From assembly GCA_958510875.1 (NCBI GenBank), contig OY294068.1, positions 156,276,388 to 156,340,387 of the forward strand: a stretch of 64,000 nucleotides of DNA. Direction: 5' to 3'. This document shows, in pieces, positions 5,592-62,498 of the stretch. The position numbers and the translations under genes are program-made. The notes under the pieces are model-generated. The model saw only the letters and a list, made by a program, of their open reading frames with translations, was not told the origin of the DNA and ran no database searches. The stretch's first letter is position 1, and the number at the start of each line of letters is the position of its first letter. The stretch comes from Endomychus coccineus (Eukaryota; Arthropoda; Insecta; Coleoptera; Endomychidae).

Positions 5592-5608
5592 TAATTGTCA
5601 ATATGATA
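5592..5608. repeat. 17-bp target site duplication, left copy (PLE 1)
   Basis: 'TAATTGTCAATATGATA' is repeated exactly at 7198-7214 on the other side of the Penelope-like element. This defines the insertion limits. Confidence 0.85.
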
Positions 5609-5689
5609 TAATAAGATTCTTGACCCAGTATGAATTATATAAAAAATTCTCGGGAATTAGGTCACATTAACACTCTGTTATAAATGTTC

Positions 5690-5731
5690 GTCTTTACGTA
5701 CGTTTCGGTCTCATGACCATCATCAGAAGAC
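5690..5731 (-). ncRNA. Hammerhead ribozyme in PLE 3' region
   Basis: Read on the minus strand from 5731. Stem I 5' strand is GUCUU. The core CUGAUGA is at 5726-5720. One unpaired U follows. Stem II is GGUC/GACC with an AUGA loop. Then come core GAAA (5706-5703), a 3-bp stem III ACG/CGU closed by a UA loop, and the cleavage nucleotide A (5695). The stem I 3' strand AAGAC pairs perfectly (5 bp) with GUCUU. All invariant core bases are present. The tiny stem III is what is known for minimal hammerheads of Penelope-like elements (Cervera and de la Pena), which tend to work as dimers. Predicted cleavage lies between 5695 and 5694 in minus-strand reading. Confidence 0.85.
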
Positions 5732-6110
5732 TTATTTTGTTAAAAAGGGGTTAACTAAAACTAATTAGCACAAGCGTCCATATCGCACAATTTTCAATCA
5801 AAAAGCTCAGGCCGTCGAAACGAACAGAACCACGAATAATCGAAAATTGTATCGTTAATATTAAAGTATAGATTTTTTTGTAACAAGAAACCACTGTTAA
5901 GTAATATTCTCATAATCTACAAACGCATATTGCTATGGTCTCAAAGCAACTGGAGTTCGAAGCTATTTGTTTGTAATAACTCGACCCAGATGTAGATTTA
6001 TGACGTACTTGAGAAGGTTTTAGACCTGCATTGGGATTCAGTTTACTTTAAGCGTTCTTCCTAAAATATACTTTTAACATTATAAAGACGTATGTAGGAA
6101 TTTGCAAGTT

Positions 6111-7151
6111 TTAATTAATCAAGTTAGTATAAATCTGACTCAATCCCTGAATATCATTCCTATGATTTACAGAATTTGAATCCCTTTTTATGTGAATCAT
6201 CTCCGAGATAGATCTTTTATAATAATTGGTTTCTTTAGTTAAAATATTAACATTTTTGTAATCAAATTGATGGTTATAAACAAAACAGTGCTTAGCAAGG
6301 GCGGTGGAATTTTCTAAGTTATTATTTCTTGTGCTATACTTATGGCCGTACATTCTGAACAATTCAATTTATATACTGTGTGGGTTTGTTTATCTTTAGG
6401 TATTACAGGTTTTAGATTTGAGAAATATTTCCCAACACAGTTAGTAGGCTCATGCGCAACATTTATATCGTACTTTTTCAAACATTTCTTAATTTTTTAT
6501 GAGGTCTATGGAATGTATGGTAAAGTTATATAATTGTCTGTATTACCTGTTATGTTATTTTTATAAGAAGAACCATTATAGATTTTGTTTATGCTCTCTT
6601 TAATGATAGGATTGTAGAAAGTTTTTGGGTAGCCATTCATTTCCAATGCATTACGAACAATTTTTAAATTTTTGGGACGGTCCTCTGCGTGGGATAATTT
6701 TACCGCGCGGTCTGTGAGGCTGTTTATGACACTTTTTTTTATAACAGGCTGGTGCAACGGAATTGAAATGAAGATAACGTTGAGACCAGACTTCCTTAGT
6801 AAACCAAGAAGTTTTCATTTTTCCATCTGCATCATGCCTAATGGTCATATCTAGAAAATTAATGTTATTGTTTATTTCTATTTCACAAGTGAATTGAAGT
6901 TTACAATGGAAATTATTAAATTTATTAATCACATATTGAATTTTATCGTTGGGAACACACATAAGGCAATCATCTACATACCGTTTAAAGAATACAGGCT
7001 GAAAATCTAATGAATTTATAACAGATTCCTCTAGGCATTCCATAACGAGGTTAGCAATGGTAGCTGAAATAGGAGATCCCATTGCTGTGCCGAAAATTTG
7101 TCCAAAATATTGCTCACCGTACTGAAAATAAGTGCATTCTAAACAAAACAT
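6111..7151 (-). pseudogene. Penelope-like RT + GIY-YIG endonuclease, broken
   Basis: The 7151-6651 frame carries PLE RT blocks in order: 'QYGEQYFGQIFGTAMGSPIS' (motif B region), 'ATIANLVMECLEE', the catalytic 'FFKRYVDDCLM' (YVDD), then 'INFLDMTIRHDADG' and 'TSWFTKEVWSQRYLHFNS'. A frameshift in a run of A codons (near 6733-6745) moves reading to the 6757-6506 frame, which ends at a premature stop. A later frame 6362-6111 carries the GIY-YIG C-terminal part ('MYGHKYSTRN', 'ALAKHCFVY'). The finger and palm part upstream of motif B is missing because of 5' truncation. Aligned by eye it is about 90% identical to the copy at 59684-61190. The catalytic YVDD is intact here, but the gene is dead. Confidence 0.85.
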
Positions 7152-7197
7152 TTATAACAGAGTGTTAATGTGACCTAATTCCCGAGAATTTTTTATA

Positions 7198-7214
7198 TAA
7201 TTGTCAATATGATA
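7198..7214. repeat. 17-bp target site duplication, right copy (PLE 1)
   Basis: Exact direct repeat of 5592-5608. Confidence 0.85.
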
Positions 7215-45972: not shown

Positions 45973-47718
45973 GGTAATTATTTACAAGAAGGGCCTCACC
46001 CCCGAATTCGATGAAAATTTTTTTACATACTACTTACGTGTTCCTTATGAACGATCAAAAAAGAAAAATCTGCGGAAATGCACCGTTTTCAAGAAAAAAA
46101 ATAAAATCTTCTCATAATTAGCACCATGTTTATCTCAAGATATTGACCTCACAAGCACATAACAACTAGCCTAAACGTCATGAAATATGTCTTTTCCAAC
46201 TATATTCCAATATTTTGATAATGAAACGTAGTAAAAATAGAAACTTTGCATTTGAAGTAAATAAACAGCATCTGACATTTAATCGTAGCCCCCTACAAGG
46301 TATTTCGTTTTCGTGTCGTCTAAAATGTCGCTTTCATAGATAAGTTCCGTTATCATTTGGATAAGTCATAGAGAAACTATACTCCAAGAAGTCTGGACTT
46401 ATTCCTATTTGAATGTGTATTTTTGTTGAATGAATTCTGTCTAGCAGCCTATTTTCCTCATTGTTTTTATAGTTCCAAGTGACAATCCATAGGTCTGAGG
46501 TTATTGGACGTATATTTTTGTAAGATGCATTCTGCAAACAGCCTATTTTCTTGATGTACTTCCAAGCGGCAATCCATAAATAGGAACAGCGTATTTCTCT
46601 AATACTTTTTGTAGGTCCAAGCGGCAATCCGTAGGGCTGAGGTTATTGGAAGAATATTTTTAGAACAGCATGTTCACCTCATTTCACAAAGAGGAATGTA
46701 TGCTCTTCAAGAATGTGCACCAAAAATACACTCTCAATAACTTCAGACCTACGCATCGCCGCTTGGAACTATGAAAAGAATGAAGGAAATAGGAAGTTCT
46801 ACATAATGCATGTGGCAAAAATACAATTTCAATAACCTCAGACCTACGAATTGCCGCTCTTCCTGATGTCTTCCAAGGAGCAATCCGTAGGTAGGAAAAA
46901 CGTATTTCCCTAATACTTGTTGTAGGTCCAAGCGGCAATCCGTAGATCTGAGGTTATTGAAAGTGTATTCTTAGAACAGCATATTCACCTCATTTCACAA
47001 AGAGGAATGTATGCTCTTCAAGAATGTGTACCAAAAATACACTTTCGAAAACTTCAGACCTACGCATTGCTGCTTGGAACTATAAAAAGAATGAAGGAAA
47101 TAGGCTACATCATGCATGTAGCAAAAATACAATTTCAATAACCTCAGACCTACGAATTGCCGCTTTTCCTGATGTCTTCCGAAGAGCAATCCGTAGGTAG
47201 AAAAAACGTAATTGCCCTAATTCTTTTTGTAGGTCCAAGCAACAAAATAAAAAAAATGAATTTAGGAACTGGCAGAGAAGTACTGACATAATTATACAGC
47301 AGTCTATGAGACTCCGAACAGCCAAACATATCATAATAATGATATCTATGGGAATAAGATATCTATGACACCAGCCTCTCAAATGAAACAAGAAGAAATA
47401 CCTTGTAGGGAAACTACAATTAAATGGCAGATGCTGTTTATTCACTTTAAATGCAAAATTTCCATTTTCACTGCGTTTCATCATCAAAATAATGGAATAT
47501 AGTTGAGAGAGACATATTTCATGACATTTAGGCTAGTTGCTTTTGAGGTCAATATCTTGAGATAAACATGGTGCTAATTATGAGAAGATTTTTTTTTTCT
47601 GGAAAACGGTGCATTTCCGCAGATTTCTCTTTTTCGATCGTTCGTAAGGAACACGTAAGTAGTCTGTACAAGAATTTTCATCAACATCGGGGGTGAGGTC
47701 TTTCTTGTAAATAATTAC
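45973..47718. mobile_element. Foldback element (~1.75 kb) with internal minisatellite
   Basis: The left arm 45973-46310 and right arm ~47390-47718 are reverse complements. 'GGTAATTATTTACAAGAA' is mirrored by 'TTTCTTGTAAATAATTACC', and 'CTCATAATTAGCACCATG' by 'CATGGTGCTAATTATGAG'. The centre holds a ~310-bp tandem repeat. No transposase is seen. It is a non-autonomous long-TIR element. Confidence 0.75.
46440..47240. repeat. ~310-bp tandem repeat built from short inverted motifs
   Basis: The anchor 'TAGGTCCAAGCGGCAATCCG' occurs at 46612 and 46922, with a decayed form at 47230 (spacing 310 and 308). A partial unit precedes at 46440. Within each unit 'GCAATCCGTAGGTCTGAGG' and its complement alternate, about ten occurrences in all, so each unit can form smaller hairpins. 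Confidence 0.8.
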
Positions 47719-48504
47719 CCCCAAATAAAATGTTATCGTTCTAATATTCCTAATAAAAACGCATTTAAATTGTTTCCGACTTGACTTTTTCAAAAATTAG
47801 GAACTGTGTTGCACAATGTGCAACTAGTGTGGAAAATAGGATATGGATAAATTACCAGTTCGCGCAAGATTCACACACTAAACTTTTCCGAGGACCTACC
47901 TGAATAACAAAATATGGCGACTCATGATGTTCGTAACAAAAAGTAGATTGACCAGACATGATTTGGCCATGTTGATCAATGAAATAACCTTGGAAAAGAT
48001 TATTTAATTTTTTTTCCATGCCATATAATTATTATATTCGCCAAATTATTTTTGTGCTTCGATTTTTGTAGTAGCACTCCTGCTGTCATTTCATTGCTAA
48101 ATTGCGAACTGGGGGAGTAGAATCTAGTATTCCGTAGTTGGATGGAAATTTCTCCTTACAGCCAAGGGAATTTTGTACGATTTATAAGTAGGTATCTATT
48201 TGATAAATTGGAATGAATAAAATTAATAACACACACTGACTACAATATCATAAATTTATTTGTAGATTCGTCATTGTCATAGCAGCCTATAATTTAAAGA
48301 AATTATACCATTGGCTAATAGATAACCCCCTCAATCCCACAGCGAGGGAACTGTGTGGGATATTCATTTCGAACGGAAATGAAATACTACGCACTGTTGT
48401 GAGATCCATTATTTTCTGTGCTAGTTCACAGTGATCACGGTTTTCAGTTAGGGTTTCGGAAATCGCTATCGACATCAAAATTAATGTTGAAAGTTGACTT
48501 TGGA
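47719..48504. other. Unassigned intronic sequence
   Basis: No recognised feature. Confidence 0.4.
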
Positions 48505-51500
48505 AAAGCAGGAGTAGAAAAATATTACTCATTCATTTACATGCAAACCGCTAGTGTATTCAACAGAAACACACGAAAATCTGAAAAGGAGGAAAGCACG
48601 TCATTACTAATTGTTTCATTATTGGCAATTTCATCAGTGCAGGGATCAATAAGATAAACGTCGTTCGAATGTAATCAGGACATGTGACGTAATTTTCAAG
48701 ATATTTTAGTAACATCTAGCAAAACAAAATCAAAAAACTAACGAGTCAGATTATACAAAATGGTGGATGCTACAGTCAAACTATGTTTTTCGATTAGGAC
48801 GTTGCGAATTGCCGAATATACTATAATGTAATAGATACGATAGTAGCTATATGTAAAAAAAGGAGGAGTGAACTCGTGAACTCTCTTAACTACTCCGAAA
48901 AACCTGATTAATAATTATTTATAGATTCTCTGTTAGAACATAGAGGAACCTAAGTGAATCAAGTTACGCATACATATAGTATAGATACACAGCAACATTG
49001 AACGTAATGATATCATAACCTAACCTAACCTAACTTCATAATACCCTATTTTATTAGCCATATAATATGATTTGTTCTAACATGACTAAAATAAAGCATG
49101 TTTGGAACCCCTCTATCCCCAAAACGTCTGGTAGTGCCATTTTGTGCAGAAGTAGAAAAATAATTATCTTTCACTTACGTGCAAACCGCTTTCGTCAAAT
49201 TGTGTATCCAACAGAAAAACGCGAAAATCAGAATGGAAAAAGGACGTTAGTGGCAAGTGATTTCATCAGTGCAAGTTTCAATAGCATGAAGGTCATTCGA
49301 ATTCAATCAGGGTATGTAACTTTGTAACTACTTTACATTCTAGTAACGTCTAGTAAAATAAAATCAAAAACACTGACCTACGATTCGGATTATACAAAAT
49401 GGTGAATGCGACAGGTAAACTCAGATTTCCCATTAGGGAAGGCTGCGAATTGCTGAATCTACGATAATATTGAACAGCAAAGAATATATGCAATACAATA
49501 GATACGTGATAGGCATATGTAACCAAGGAGGAGTAAACTCGTAAACTAGCTTAACTATTCCAAAAAAACTGATTATAAATTACTTATAGTTCCTCTGTTA
49601 GAACATACAGGAACATAAGTGAATCAAGTTACGTATACATATAATTCAGATACCCAGCAACATTGAACGTAATGATATCATAGCCTAGCCTAACCTCAGA
49701 TTATCCCATTTTCTTAGCCATATCCTGATATGAATTGGTCTAACCTGACTAAAATAAAGCAAGTTTGGAACCCCTCTGGCCTCAAAACGTCTTGTAGTTT
49801 CACTCTGTGCAGGAGTAGAAAAATAGTTATTGTTTACTTACGTGAAATTGTGTATTCAACAGAAACACACAAAAATCAGAATGGGAAAAGCACGATTACT
49901 AAGTGAACCCATTATTGGTAGTTTCGTCAGTGCAAATTTCAAAAGCATGGAGATTATTCGAATGTTATCAGAATATATAACGTAGTTTCTAATACGTTAC
50001 ATCCTAGTAACATCTATTAAGATAAAATCAAAAACACTGATTCACGTCGCATTATACAAAATGGTGGATGCGACAGGCAAGCTCAGATGTCCTATTAGGA
50101 AAGGCTGCCGATTGTTGAATCTACGATAATATTAGACAAACCAAAGCCAAGTATAGATGCAATGCAGTAGATACGCGATAGCTATATGTAGAAAAAGGGG
50201 AGTAAAATCTTCAGATACCCAGCAGCATTGAACGTAATGATCTCATAGTCTAACCTAACTTCAGAATATCCCATTTTCTTAGCCATATACTGATATGAGT
50301 TGTTCTATCCTGACTAACATGGAGCATGTTTGGAACCCTCTACCCCTACATTTGATAGTGCCATTTTGTGCAGGAGTAGAAAAATAATCATTTTTCACTT
50401 AAGCGCAAACCGCTTCCGTCAAGTTGTGTATTCAACAGAAACACACTAACATCAGAATGGGAAAAGCATGTTATAGCTAAGTGATCCATTATTGGTCATT
50501 TCATCTGTGCAAGATTCAATAAGAATGAAGATTACTTAAATGTAATTGAGATATGTAGCGTAATTTTTAGGATCATTCTAGTAACGTCTAGCAAAATAAA
50601 ATCCAAAAAAACTGACATACGGTATGAGTTATATAAAATGGTGGATGCGACAGGCAAACGCAATTTTCCTCTTGGGAAAGGTTACGAATTGGTGAATCTA
50701 CGATATTATTAGACATATCGAAGCAAAGTATAGATGCAATACAATAGGTACAATAGCTATACGTGAAAAAATCGGAATATACTGGTAAGCTCACTGTTCC
50801 AAAACAACTGAATAATAATTATTTATAGTTCCTCTGTTAAAATATAGAGGAACCTAAATGAATCATGTTAGGTATTCATACTAATATAGCACAATTCAAC
50901 GTAATGATTCCATAACCTAACCTAGCTTCAGAATATCCCATTTTCTTAACACTATACTTAGGAATTTTAAACCTATTCAACGCTGAATCGATTCAAAGGT
51001 GTCGATGTATCGGGATGAATGAATCGATTCAAATTATCTAGATTATTTGGTGGAACGATTCGATGGTTTCGACTATCTAATTCGATAACGATCGCTTCAT
51101 TTTGATGACCTCTATTAAGCGGTAGTCTAACTTCTTGCTTCGATCATAAATTTCTACCAGTCAAAATCTATCAATAATAAAACTGCTTAATATCTCATAG
51201 AAGATCGGTTATCAGCCAAAAGATTAGCAAAACTCTTGTTTGGAACAATCCGGGGAAATCCCCAACTTGGACAGGGGAAATTCATCGAAGCACGGATAGG
51301 AGAAGCGATTACGATGAAAACGGTTGGAAGGTATTGCGTGCTAAGCATGGAATAACGTTAGACACATATTGATCAAAAATATAGAGGCTTCACTTATGTG
51401 TTTACATATTTAGTGTAGTTCTTTCGGATGTATTCAAGTTTTGTTTCATTAAAACCTCTAAAACTTTTTCCTAGGTTCATTACATAAGACAACATGGAAT

Positions 51501-57870: not shown

Positions 57871-59204
57871 GCTAGAGCTGCTTTGCCGTCTGGTCATATG
57901 CTGATGTTATTTTGCGTTCTCACTTCAAACGTTGTTTGAAACCAGCGCGTTATAGTTAGTATTTGCATTTAGAACATAGTGGCGTGTTTTCCTAGAGGTA
58001 TAATGATACCTTCGCCTTCATAAACCACGAACGCCAAGGCAAAGGTATTATTTTATAGCTTCATTGGTAAACCAGATTTCGCAATTGGATGGTAGTACTG
58101 ATTGTTTGTTATTGAGTCAATCTTCTCTGGAGGGTATACTTATACATAGCCTCAAGCGAGAAACTTGGATGATCTGTAAAGAGCACCGTCGCGTTGAACA
58201 GAAGTTGCACTGCTGTTTTTTGAACTATCCAATTGCAAAAAAGCATGATCAGTTAGAAATCTCACAGCAACAATGCTTTAACATGAAGTAGATGATAGGG
58301 GTTTATTTTCGTCCTCTTAAAATTACCCATAATAACTGAAATATATTTCTGTTTGTTTGAAATATGTTTTTGCGTGTTGGTCTGTTCCATTGACTTCAGC
58401 TTCCTCTCATTCAGGAGTTCTAGTTGCTTAAAATCTTCCTGCAGTAGTGCAGTATTACTCACTCTTGCAAATGATCCCGTTGCATAAAGGCGTATGAATG
58501 CTTTTAAAAGTATGAGTATTAGACAGTTGACGTTAAGGATACTTATTTCCGTGAATACGATGAGCTCTACAAGCATTCATCACAGCAAGTTCATGAACGA
58601 AATGCATGTCGGCCATTTCATGATAATAATCAAATAAATTAAATGGAAGTTTGAATAGGTACTAACTCTAATGATTACAACTTCCAATACAAAATATGTA
58701 AATTTTTGATAAATAGGTTACATTAACACATGAGTCAACTATATTTTATTCTTTACGTTCGTTGACATGTTCGAAAACGAATTCACGTTACAAAATCCCA
58801 TGGTTCCTTAAACTACTTTCACTAAGCAAAGCATGGAGTCTCTTTATCGTATTAATTTCAAATAAAGATATCTATGTTCCAACAATGAACAAAACACGAA
58901 TAACTGAAGATGTAACATAATAATGTGTAATATATGTATGTATTAGAAAACAATTACATAGTAATGTTTCTATAATTGAAGACGTCATATATCGCGAAAG
59001 AAACAGAACGGTCTGACCTGACAACAAGGTTCACTTTGCGCAAAATCGGTGAATTGTTAAACAGATCTATTTACAATTTTATGACTACGATATTAAATTT
59101 ATTTGCTGTACCGGTATTACTGATATATCGTATCAGCTTTCTACATTAACACGATTTTAAACAATATAAGGAAATACGTATAAACGTGTAAGTGCTTAGT
59201 TAAT
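57871..59204. other. Unassigned intronic sequence
   Basis: No recognised element. The 104-residue minus frame at 58262-58576 has no known domain by eye. Confidence 0.4.
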
Positions 59205-59480
59205 TAAATTTGTATAAATTAGACTCAATGATTGTACATCAGTTCTATGATTTACAGAATAAGCATCACGATATATGTGAATCATCAGGTTAGATCTGTT
59301 ATAATAAATAATTGGTTTCTTCAACTAAAATATTAATAGCACTGATGGTTATAATGGAACCATTTTTGTTTTTAATACTATAATTTTGGCCATACACTCC
59401 TTTTCACCCGAGGACGAGAATATAGCTGACGTATGTGTTAATGTGCTCTATTTCCTGAGAATTTATATTTAATTCGTACC
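59205..59480 (-). mobile_element. Short PLE derivative (internal deletion), copy 3
   Basis: On the minus strand, 59480-59430 matches the inverted tail of the PLE family ('TCTCAGGAAATAGAG.ACAT' region). It is directly followed by the decayed C-terminal coding end (59400-59205), which parallels 6360-6105: 'TTATAATAA.TAATTGGTTTC' and 'TTCTATGATTTACAGAAT' are shared. RT and most of GIY-YIG are gone. It lies head-to-head with the large copy that starts at 59502. Confidence 0.65.
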
Positions 59481-59491
59481 TTCATTATCAT

Positions 59492-59501
59492 ACTTTCAAT
59501 A
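59492..59501. repeat. 10-bp target site duplication, left (PLE 2)
   Basis: 'ACTTTCAATA' is repeated at 61660-61669. Confidence 0.7.
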
Positions 59502-59599
59502 ATAATAAAGATTCTTGACCCAGTATGAATTATATATAAAAATTCTCGGGAAATAGGTCATATTAACACTTTGTTTTAAATATTCGTCTTTAAAAAAAA

Positions 59600-61190
59600 A
59601 TATGTGAAATAGGAAACCTTTTAAATGATGAAACAACTTATAAAAAATTAAAATCTGATCCTACTTTATCAGTACAAAGTAACATGAATAAATTGATAAA
59701 TAAATGGCATAAGAATAAGATAACCCCTATTGAATTAAAAAATAAATTAATTTGCCATATTGGGCTAGCACCTTATATCTATGGGCTTCCAAAACTACAT
59801 AAAAATGATATACCTCTAAGACCCATTGTTAGTAATATTGGAGCGCCTACTTACAATTTATCAAAATTTCTATCAAAATCTATCAATAATATAATAGGAA
59901 GAAATGAATTCTATGTAAAAGACTCATGGCACTAATGAATTTATAAAAAATCGATCCGTACCCGTAAACCATCAACTGATTTCCTTGGACGTTGTTTCTT
60001 TATTTACAAATATACCTGTCGTTTTGGCATTGAATAGCATCAAAAAACGTTTGGCAGAGATTAAAAACCACGCACCTCTAGATCAATCGGAATTTATAAA
60101 TGCTGTAAAATTTTGTTTAGAATGCATATACTTTCAGTATGGTGAGCAATATTTTGGACAAATATTCGACACAGCAATGAGATCTCTTATTTCAGCTATC
60201 ATTGCTAACCTCGTTATGGAGTGCCTAGAAGAATCTGTTATGAGTTCATTAGATTTCCGGGCTGTATTCTTTAAACGGTATGTAGATGATTGCCTTATGT
60301 GTGTTCCCAACGATAAAATTTAATATGTGATTGATAAATTTAACAAGTTCCACTGTGAACTTCAATTCACTTGTGAAATAGAATTAAACAAAAACATAAA
60401 TTTCCTAGATATGAACATTAGGCATGCTGCAGATGGAAAAATAAAAACCTCTTGGTTTACTAAAGAAGTTTGGTCTCAACGTTATCTTCATTTCAATTCC
60501 GTTGCACCAGCTTGTTATAAAAAAAGTGTCATAAACAGTCTTACAGACCGCGCGATTAAATTGACCCACGCAGATGACCGCCCCAAAAATTAAAAAATTG
60601 TTCGTAATACACTAGAAATGAATGGCTACCCAAAAACTTTTTTCAATCCAATCATTAAAGAAAGAATAAACAAAATCTATAATGGTTCGTCGTATAAGAA
60701 TAACATAAAAGGTAATACAGACAATTTTATAACTTTACCATACATTCCGGAGACCTCAGAGGAAATCGAAAAATGTTTGAAAAAGTATGATATAAATGTT
60801 GCGCATAAACCTACTAACTGTGTTGGGAAATATTTCTCAAATCTAAAACCTGTAATACCTAAAGATAAACAAACTCACACAGTGTATAAATTGAATTGTT
60901 CAGATTGTGATGGAACCTATACTGGAACCTCTAAACAATATTTACAAAAAAGAATGTACGGCCATAAATATAGCACAAGAAATAAAAACTTAGAAAATTC
61001 CACCGCCCTTGCTAAGCACTGCTTTGATTACAACGATCAATTTGATTACAAAGATGTTAATATCTTAACTAAGGAAACCGATTATTATAAAAGATCTATC
61101 CTGGAGATGATTCACATAAAACGGGATTCCAAATCCGTAAATCATAGGGTAGACACACAAAATCATATTTATACTAATTTGATTAAATAA
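59600..61190 (+). pseudogene. Penelope-like RT + GIY-YIG, near-complete reading with few lesions
   Basis: RT blocks in order: 'PYIYGLPKLHKNDIPLRPIV' (59770-59830), 'GAPTYNLSKFLSKS', 'LDVVSLFTNIPVV' (motif A, 59980), then 'QYGEQYFGQIFDTAMRSLIS' (motif B; the usual MGSPIS is changed to MRSLIS), the catalytic 'FKRYVDDCLM' (YVDD, 60277), 'INFLDMNIRHAADG' and 'SWFTKEVWSQRYLHFNS'. Then 'PKTFFNPIIKERINKIYN', and the endonuclease 'HTVYKLNCSDCDGTYTGTSK', in which VYKL...YTG is the GIY-YIG core with a CxxC knuckle, followed by 'QYLQKRMYGHKYSTRN'. Lesions: a frameshift/stop near 59934, TAA at 60321 (CAA in copy 1) and TAA at 60591. The endonuclease frame 60618-61190 is fully open. RT would copy element RNA at a GIY-YIG nick. 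Confidence 0.88.
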
Positions 61191-61590
61191 TAATCTCTTG
61201 CAAATTCTTACATACGTCTTTATGATTGTTGAAAATGTTTTTAGGAAGAAAGCGTAGTAGTAATTTTCCAGTACAGGTCTGAAACCTTTCTTAAGTACCT
61301 ACTCATAAATCTTACACATCTGGTTTCGAAAGTAGATACTGGACAAATAACTTCGTTGTGAGAATACCAACATGCACTTATACATTTTAATAATATTACT
61401 GAATAGCGGATTCTTACTACAAAAAATTTTTATACTTTAATACTTACTGACGATACAATTTCAATTATTCGTGGGTCTGTTCGTTTTGACGGCGTGGGCT
61501 CTTTTGATTGAAATTAAATTTGTGCGATTTGTGCGATTTGGACGCTTGTGCTATAATTAGTTTTAATAAACCCCTTTTTAGACATAGTGA

Positions 61591-61632
61591 GTCTTCTGAT
61601 GATGGTCGTGAGACCGAAACGTACGTACAGAC
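61591..61632 (+). ncRNA. Hammerhead ribozyme in PLE copy 2
   Basis: Stem I 5' strand is GUCUU (61591-61595). CUGAUGA is at 61596-61602, then one unpaired U. Stem II is GGUC-GUGA-GACC (61604-61615). GAAA is at 61616-61619. Stem III ACG/CGU has a UA loop. The cleavage base A is at 61627. The stem I 3' strand CAGAC pairs at four of five positions. Compared with copy 1 the only changes are in the stem II loop (GUGA versus AUGA) and the first base of the stem I 3' strand, so structure is conserved between copies. Confidence 0.85.
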
Positions 61633-61659
61633 GAATATTTCCCGAGATTTTTTATATAC

Positions 61660-61669
61660 ACTTTCAATA
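61660..61669. repeat. 10-bp target site duplication, right (PLE 2)
   Basis: Exact repeat of 59492-59501. Confidence 0.7.
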
Positions 61670-62498
61670 TATACAATTTGAAGAAATATCCAACAATGCC
61701 TGACATTTTTGCTTCGCTCGTATCATCGATCGAATGACACACTTATATTCATGCAATTTTAAATATTTGAAGTTTGAATCTCACAATTCATTTTCAATTC
61801 TTGACTAAAAGTTCCAAATGTTTTGGTGCTTCTCATTATCAAGTATCCATAATTGGGTGCACCAATATATTCGGAGTGGTAAAGATCTAAAAATGTATCG
61901 TGAGAATCACTTCTAATATTTGGAATTGTTCAAAATTAAGTGAAACTTGAGTAACACCAATTCATTATATTTATTCGTTTTACCAATTAATTTTTTTAAA
62001 TGCAATTAATCATTAAATGATGACAACTTGAGACAGGTCCTTGCCAGACTAAGTTCCACGTTCAACAAAGCGTTAAAATGTGATTCTCACAGAGCTATTG
62101 CTTCTTTCCTTAAATAATTTGAATGATTTTCAAATCTCTCCTAATGCTTGCTCACTGAACATTATATCCTTATGGTTAATCCCACTGAATTTCGTCACAT
62201 GGTATACCAACTTTGGTTAGAATATCTTAATTTCCCGAATTTTAAAGCCTTATATGTCGTAAATGACATATGTTTATTTGACAAAGTCTCATTTTTGAAC
62301 AAACAATACACACACACATTTTTTCACATGGAATTTTGAAACATCCTGTATATATTCTCATATAGTAATTTCAAAAACAATGTGTGCGAGTTCATGTAGC
62401 GTATGTTGTGTTGTCAGAAATGGGTCTCCCCTGAAGAAACAGAAAATCTTGGAAATGTTACTGTTTCCTAAGTGTAGTATTTCCATCCCGCTTTTCAA
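61670..62498. other. Unassigned intronic sequence
   Basis: No recognised element. A short ORF at 62148-62339 has no family motif. Confidence 0.4.

What the first reader, a model, noticed from the sequence alone, without database searches (positions are those of the whole stretch)
59502..59600. Inverted 5' tail of PLE copy 2 ends exactly at the hammerhead cleavage position
The 5' end of copy 2 is an inverted copy of the 3' tail. Its inner limit (GUCUU at 59586-59590) corresponds to the first bases after the predicted cleavage site. A junction at the self-cleavage point suggests that the cleaved 3' product, or cDNA ending at the cleaved RNA terminus, was used in the insertion (for example template jumping or snap-back priming). 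This would link ribozyme activity to the odd inverted ends of PLEs.
Basis: partly seen in the sequence, partly recalled or inferred. Interest (0 to 1): 0.75.

Follow-up and report, generated by a model that had tools for sequence, protein, structure and literature searches.

The report
Retroelement arm ends at ribozyme cut
One end of a Penelope-like jumping gene in an insect-like genome stops exactly where its own RNA is predicted to cut itself, and in a limited sample other copies seem to do so more often than chance would give, which suggests that self-cut RNA is sometimes used as the template for inserting new copies.

Summary
The junction is real. Copy 2 (window 59502-61659) is one insertion flanked by a 10-bp repeat. 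Its inverted 5' arm stops at GTCTT (59586-59590), the complement of the first five bases after the predicted hammerhead cut, plus two ambiguous bases and a 14-nt filler.

The arm is not a copy of copy 2's own 3' tail: it reaches further out and lacks that tail's internal deletion. In 18 of 23 scorable two-armed insertions one tail is short and the other long, and 11 of 12 insertions share flanks of 8-17 bp. I read this as two-sided target-primed reverse transcription.

Among the copies read, most arm ends do NOT lie at the cut: they scatter through the tail, the ribozyme and up to about 1.8 kb beyond. There is a modest peak at the cut. In a nested sample, 4 of 8 arms ending within 12 nt stop exactly at +1 (p 0.003; 0.03-0.09 with wider bins); in a scan of 41 positions +1 fits best. 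Part of that list was chosen near the cut.

The parts
59492..59501 (+). left copy of the flanking repeat ACTTTCAATA (target site duplication)
59502..59592 (-). inverted 5' arm of copy 2; the match to the unit runs 59498-59592, tail +92 to -2, overlapping the flanking repeat by 4 bases
59586..59590 (-). GTCTT, complement of AAGAC, the first five bases after the predicted hammerhead cut
59593..59606 (.). filler of about 14 nt between the arms, not aligned to the unit
59607..61659 (+). long arm of copy 2: element body from U1 position -2034 through ribozyme and short tail; no full-length ORF
61596..61627 (+). hammerhead motif CTGATGATGGTCGTGAGACCGAAACGTACGTA at the 3' end of copy 2; predicted cut after 61627
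   Evidence: cut rule recalled, arrangement as in PMC11167929
61628..61659 (+). short 3' tail of copy 2, with an internal deletion of 27 nt that the 5' arm does not have
61660..61669 (+). right copy of the flanking repeat ACTTTCAATA
5608..7202 (-). copy 1, comparison case: two-armed insertion on the minus strand, inverted arm 7147-7202 with inner limit about +7, short 5' tail, long 3' tail, 17-bp shared flank
5695..5726 (-). hammerhead motif of copy 1

Best explanation
Copy 2 is one insertion of a Penelope-like element (PLE) made by two-sided target-primed reverse transcription. Both staggered target strands were cut and each 3' end primed cDNA synthesis inside the tail, one at the distal and one at the proximal start site. 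One cDNA ran about 2 kb into the body. The other was made on RNA that the hammerhead had already cut, and stopped by run-off at the new 5' end (+1). The two cDNA ends were then joined with about 14 nt of filler. Shown by sequence: the two arms, the flanking repeat, the unequal tails, and the arm end at the predicted cut here and in several other copies. Inferred: that the cut really happens at that bond in this RNA, that both strands were primed, and that the arm end is run-off rather than a stop on folded RNA.
For: Flanking repeats: 11 of 12 insertions share 8-17 bp, and 7 of 12 share 12 or more, against a maximum of 11 in 132 mismatched pairs (19 of these reach 8). Unequal tails: of 34 divergent tail pairs, 23 could be scored at both ends and 18 of these have one short and one long tail (p 0.004); copy 2's 5' tail is the longer. 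Published in vitro work on an Anolis PLE: both target strands are cut and extended, and synthesis starts at two adjacent internal tail sites (PMC11167929). Arm ends at the cut: copy 2 and L039, L118 and L122, L131, L132, L133 and L136. In the nested sample 4 of 8 arms end exactly at +1, and 0 of the 4 copies lost between -4 and -8 are junctions. Whole-genome exact-match loss across the cut is 218 of 2437 against 150 of 2219 across the next, identical CGTA (p 0.006).
Against: Most arms read end elsewhere. The p-values are moderate, and 10 of the 36 placed arm ends come from a sample restricted to +5 to -7. The extra loss across the cut is partly due to base changes at -1: 13 of 16 point variants read in that 4-nt window affect that base. 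For L118 the first two bases of AAGAC could belong to the partner arm, so its limit is +1 to +3. Rfam finds no hammerhead at E up to 1 at 61560-61670 or in L023, so the cut position rests on the motif rule and the Anolis arrangement. In the Anolis study ribozyme mutants inserted as well in vitro, unprocessed RNA was the main substrate, the ribozyme cut only with protein added, and no RNA-seq read began or ended at the cut. A weaker second cluster lies at +7, where helix I begins, as a stop on folded RNA would give. Exceptions to unequal tails: 4 short/short and 1 long/long, and by eye L063 and L085, both short/short (not scored).
Confidence: 0.56

Rival explanations
1. Arm ends are ordinary incomplete cDNAs. 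Reverse transcriptase falls off anywhere, with some preference for the edges of the folded ribozyme, and copy 2 happens to lie at the cut.
For: Ends are spread over +26 to -46 and far beyond. Secondary cluster at +7 and several ends at -11 to -15, where helix I and stem II begin. Outside the targeted sample and copy 2, only 3 of 25 ends are at the cut (my arithmetic). With three 4-nt bins the nested sample gives p 0.088.
Against: +1 is not the entry of a helix but the far end of one, and several ends there are exact: the base before it is T, not A, in L118, L132, L133 and L136. 4 of 8 at one prespecified position, p 0.0026.
Confidence: 0.31
2. Snap-back or self-priming: the first cDNA ran off at the cut, folded back on itself and copied its own tail to make the inverted arm (or, as proposed for Adineta PLEs, self-priming on an antisense template).
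For: L118 and L136 read as tail-tail palindromes in which a cDNA end at +1 could have primed on its own A/T run. Self-priming was inferred for Adineta PLEs from palindromes at inverted junctions (PMC3846280, passages seen).
Against: Copy 2's inverted tail is longer than, and lacks the deletion of, its own 3' tail, so it was not copied from it. Unequal tails in 18 of 23 scored pairs and shared flanks in 11 of 12 fit two separate priming events.
Confidence: 0.08
3. The inverted arm was already part of the transposed template (an inherited composite), so the junction was copied rather than formed anew.
For: L002 shares the inverted tail plus a body start near the same place (-2065 against -2034), 87% over the 199-bp query.
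Against: L002's arm ends at +17, not +1, and its body start differs by about 31 nt. Copies with an end at the cut have different partners: -2034, -2262, and tail-only. Of 12 insertions examined, 11 have flanking repeats, each with its own letters.
Confidence: 0.05

Closest known systems
Poseidon-type PLE of Anolis carolinensis (PAc), PMC11167929 (parts 1 and 2 of 4 of the text read; passages)
   Same: hammerhead just before the tail, cut 26 bp downstream of an ATG (here ATGG...GTA is also 26 nt), two internal start sites bounding the tail, both target strands cut and extended, tandem pLTR units
   Different: there ribozyme mutants did not alter insertion in vitro and no read began or ended at the cut; here a minority of the genomic arms read end at the predicted cut; and here the frame of that ATG meets a stop (TAA) at the cut, by reading, so the ORF does not start in the ribozyme
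Penelope families of the rotifer Adineta vaga, PMC3846280 (passages seen)
   Same: inverted pLTR next to a direct one, a tail extension optionally at one of the inverted pLTRs, target duplications of 8-10 bp in some copies
   Different: explained there by self-priming on an antisense template; in the passages seen the ribozyme position is not compared with the inverted junction
R2 non-LTR retrotransposon with HDV-like ribozyme, PMC3774820 (start of abstract in the search listing)
   Different: different ribozyme, site-specific element, and the junction is the element's normal 5' end rather than the inner end of an inverted arm
Twin priming in human LINE-1 (recalled)
   Same: the second target strand primes on the RNA and gives an inverted 5' part
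   Different: in L1 the second priming is internal and variable; here both primings seem to use the two tail start sites

Membership tests
Penelope-like elements (PLE) | PLE-type reverse transcriptase | tested here: met
   820-codon open frame in L055: 642 relatives at E<=0.001 among 7998 scored candidates, many of the 120 listed with PF00078. My own Pfam scans gave 0 families (copy 2 pieces at E<=0.01; L055 at E<=0.1), and no solved structure matched, so this rests on the relatives.
Penelope-like elements (PLE) | C-terminal GIY-YIG endonuclease | tested here: inconclusive
   4 of 120 listed relatives carry PF01541 and two others are named GIY-YIG by a source; no direct Pfam hit.
Penelope-like elements (PLE) | tandem units / pLTR and inverted 5' ends | tested here: met
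   three ribozymes spaced 2966 bp in L055; inverted arms in copies 1, 2 and others. Other copies have no arm that I could find, e.g. L046, L049, L053.
Penelope-like elements (PLE) | tail extension at one end only | tested here: met
   18 of 23 scored two-armed pairs; 4 short/short, 1 long/long, 11 more not scorable.
hammerhead ribozyme (PLE minimal type) | core CUGAUGA ... GAAA ... NUH with closing helix I | tested here: met
   GTCTT-CTGATGA ... GAAA-CGTACGTA^AAGAC by reading; 4120 + 4169 exact copies of the 32-nt motif, 0 in the reversed control. Core rule recalled.
hammerhead ribozyme (PLE minimal type) | match to an Rfam covariance model | tested here: not met
   no match at gathering threshold in the window, nor at E<=1 in 61560-61670 and in L023 1430-1570.
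hammerhead ribozyme (PLE minimal type) | self-cleavage at the predicted bond | not testable with these tools
   needs in vitro transcription.

The most novel reading that the evidence does not exclude
The hammerhead acts as an arm-length switch in PLE insertion. One of the two reverse transcriptase start sites works on uncut RNA and makes the long arm, while the ribozyme, cut when the protein binds the tail, supplies a tail-only template whose cDNA runs off at the cut and closes the other side of the target. The cleavage-site base is itself a variability hotspot because template passes across the cut are error-prone.
Probability: 0.22. Interest if true: 0.82.

Novelty: new variant of a known kind. 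Interest (0 to 1): 0.55.

Why it matters
PLEs carry a hammerhead whose role in transposition is unclear; in the in vitro system that I read about it was dispensable for insertion and no RNA ending at the cut was seen. Arm ends exactly at the cut would be a genomic trace that cleaved RNA is used as template in vivo. This genome has 8,289 exact ribozyme motifs, so the question can be settled by counting arm ends. The unequal short and long tails on the two arms also give a plain rule for reading PLE insertions.

Tried and rejected
Snap-back from copy 2's own 3' end: rejected because the 5' tail is longer and lacks the 3' tail's deletion. Inherited composite via L002: rejected because its arm ends at +17. 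Loss-of-match counts across the cut are confounded by variants at -1, which I wanted to count separately; that search did not complete. Rfam and Pfam gave nothing direct. A pile-up of longer-arm starts near -156 to -178 is partly an alignment artefact of diverged families and was not pursued.

Choices in the list of 36 arm ends (typed into): L080 is set at -11, while the script stopped at -3 because of a mismatch. L115 (-9), L111, L112 and L116 are estimates by eye. Dropped: L044 (-2), because the ribozyme's left flank precedes it, so it looks like a decayed ribozyme and not an arm; and the old relic in L001 (-10). L149 is not in the list. For flanking repeats L008 was dropped (other end out of view) and L004, whose other end lies in a tandem, counts as the one miss of 12.

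Full report
What is there. The window lies in an unnamed 906-Mb genome. The highest-ranked relative of the element's protein with a named organism is from the ladybird beetle Coccinella septempunctata (P0047, 42% identity over 68% of the query; closer ones up to 54% carry no name). Copy 2 is a Penelope-like element insertion at 59502-61659, flanked by ACTTTCAATA on both sides. Its order is: inverted tail (to 59592), about 14 nt of filler, body from unit position -2034, ribozyme (61596-61627) and a short tail. Copy 2 has no full-length ORF, while a tandem copy elsewhere (L055) has 820 open codons. That frame has 642 relatives among 7998 scored candidates, many of the 120 listed carrying a reverse transcriptase domain and four a GIY-YIG domain. 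My own Pfam and PDB searches found nothing.

The cut. The 32-nt motif CTGATGATGGTC(A/G)TGAGACCGAAACGTACGTA occurs 4120 + 4169 times exactly and 0 times in the reversed control. With GTCTT before it and AAGAC after it, it forms a minimal hammerhead with helix I of five pairs. The cut after GUA is my reading by the recalled hammerhead rule. [quoted passage not shown] the same stretch here is 26 nt. Rfam reports no match, so the cut is predicted, not shown. In copy 2's own 3' ribozyme the first base after the cut is C, so one pair of helix I is lost.

Copy 2's arm. The inverted arm matches the tail from +92 to +1 and by two more bases to -2. It was not copied from copy 2's own 3' tail, which ends nearer (about +58) and lacks 27 internal nt. 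Copy 1 in the same window has the opposite arrangement (short 5' tail, long 3' tail) and its arm stops at about +7.

Two-sided insertion. In 12 insertions with both ends in view, the flanks share 7-17 bp, 11 of them 8 or more. Mismatched pairs of flanks average 6.5; 19 of 132 reach 8 and the maximum is 11, which 7 of the 12 true pairs exceed. Of 34 divergent tail pairs, 23 could be scored at both ends: 18 have one short and one long tail, 4 short/short, 1 long/long (p 0.004). In my view several of these five exceptions are old or composite loci (L001, L044, L047, L073) and one has a truncated tail (L086). By eye L063 and L085 are further short/short cases. Long palindromes also occur: 1.7-kb arms in L057 and a 3.3-kb palindrome in L058. 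Other copies have no inverted arm that I could find. The picture fits the in vitro result that an Anolis PLE protein cuts and extends both strands and starts inside the RNA at two adjacent sites bounding the tail. The one-sided tail and inverted pLTRs themselves are already published for rotifer PLEs (passages).

Where arms end. From 155 fetched, partly overlapping loci and the window I placed 36 arm ends between +26 and -15 (list). They scatter; 8 have maximal matches ending at +1, -1 or -2 where 2.6 are expected (p 0.004). A one-cluster model scanned over 41 positions fits +1 best and +7, the entry of helix I, second; p for the prespecified +1 is 0.0035. This list is not unbiased: 10 of the 36 come from copies selected because their match ends between +5 and -7, and copy 2 is the case that raised the question. 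Without these, 3 of 25 lie in the cut class against 1.8 expected (my arithmetic). Many further arms include the ribozyme and end at its far edge or upstream, for example at -32, -37 and -46 and on to about -1829.

Nested counts. For two subfamilies together, exact matches from +27 leftwards number 2550 to +5, 2437 to +1, 2219 to -4 and 2069 to -8. The loss is 4.4%, then 8.9% across the cut, then 6.8% across the next identical CGTA (8.9 against 6.8%: p 0.006). Of the first 100 places matching to +1, 10 do not reach -4: 5 are point variants with the ribozyme otherwise intact (L128, L129, L130, L134, L135) and 5 are junctions (L118; L131, L132, L133, L136). Four of these have their maximal match end exactly at +1; L131 matches to -2; for L118 the limit could be +1 to +3. 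Of the first 100 places matching to +5, 6 do not reach +1: three variant or deleted ribozymes (L137, L138, L141) and three arm ends at +5, +4 and +3 (L139, L140). Of the first 100 matching to -4, 4 do not reach -8, all variants (one in L047/L019, L119, L142, L143). So 8 arms end in this 12-nt stretch, 4 of them exactly at +1 (p 0.0026); as 5 of 8 at +1 to -2, p is 0.027, and as 5 of 8 in one of three 4-nt bins, 0.088.

A third subfamily. Matches fall from 207 to 175 across the cut. Of the first 100 places, 14 are lost. L039 and L122 are arms ending at the cut. L149, of which only 18 bases were read, shows what looks like the ribozyme's left flank joined directly to +1, which I take for a ribozyme deletion. 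The other 11 are point variants, 9 of them at -1. No neighbouring bins were counted for this subfamily.

Verdict. The cut is a preferred but minority arm end in what I read; run-off on cleaved RNA during two-sided priming is the most likely cause (0.56). A general link between ribozyme activity and all inverted PLE ends is not supported. In the listings, and in the parts of papers that I read (PMC11167929 parts 1-2 and passages; passages of PMC3846280, PMC12910113 and PMC6155905), I saw no comparison of arm ends with the ribozyme cut. Cervera and de la Pena 2014 and the original Penelope papers did not appear in those listings and were not read.

Noticed in passing
L128-L136, L144-L155, cut site: The base just before the cut (A17, -1) looks like a variability hotspot: 13 of 16 point variants read in the 4-nt window affect it, mostly A to G, which should abolish cleavage. 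Both arms of one insertion (L153, L154) share the variant, so it was probably in the template.
   Followed up: partly
L001-L087 and window copies (pairs listed): One short and one long tail per two-armed insertion: 18 of 23 scorable pairs of 34.
   Followed up: partly
window 58696-59480: An older PLE relic beside copy 2: tail in inverted orientation near 58701 and in direct orientation at 59412-59480, the latter also ending at about +1 to +3 (GGACGAG at 59412).
   Followed up: partly
L061, L063, L078, L084 and others: Starts of the longer arm lie near -156 to -178 in several small insertions, possibly a transcription start or a stop, partly an alignment artefact of diverged families.
   Followed up: no
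L115: Two extra bases at the cut site (GTACGTTAAAAGAC) shared by both arms of one insertion.
   Followed up: no
window 48508-50958: Degenerate direct repeats with spacing of about 560-665 bp, several families.
   Followed up: no
window 45973-47719: Large imperfect palindrome with internal repeats (arms 129, 126 and 61 nt, 89-97% complementary).
   Followed up: no
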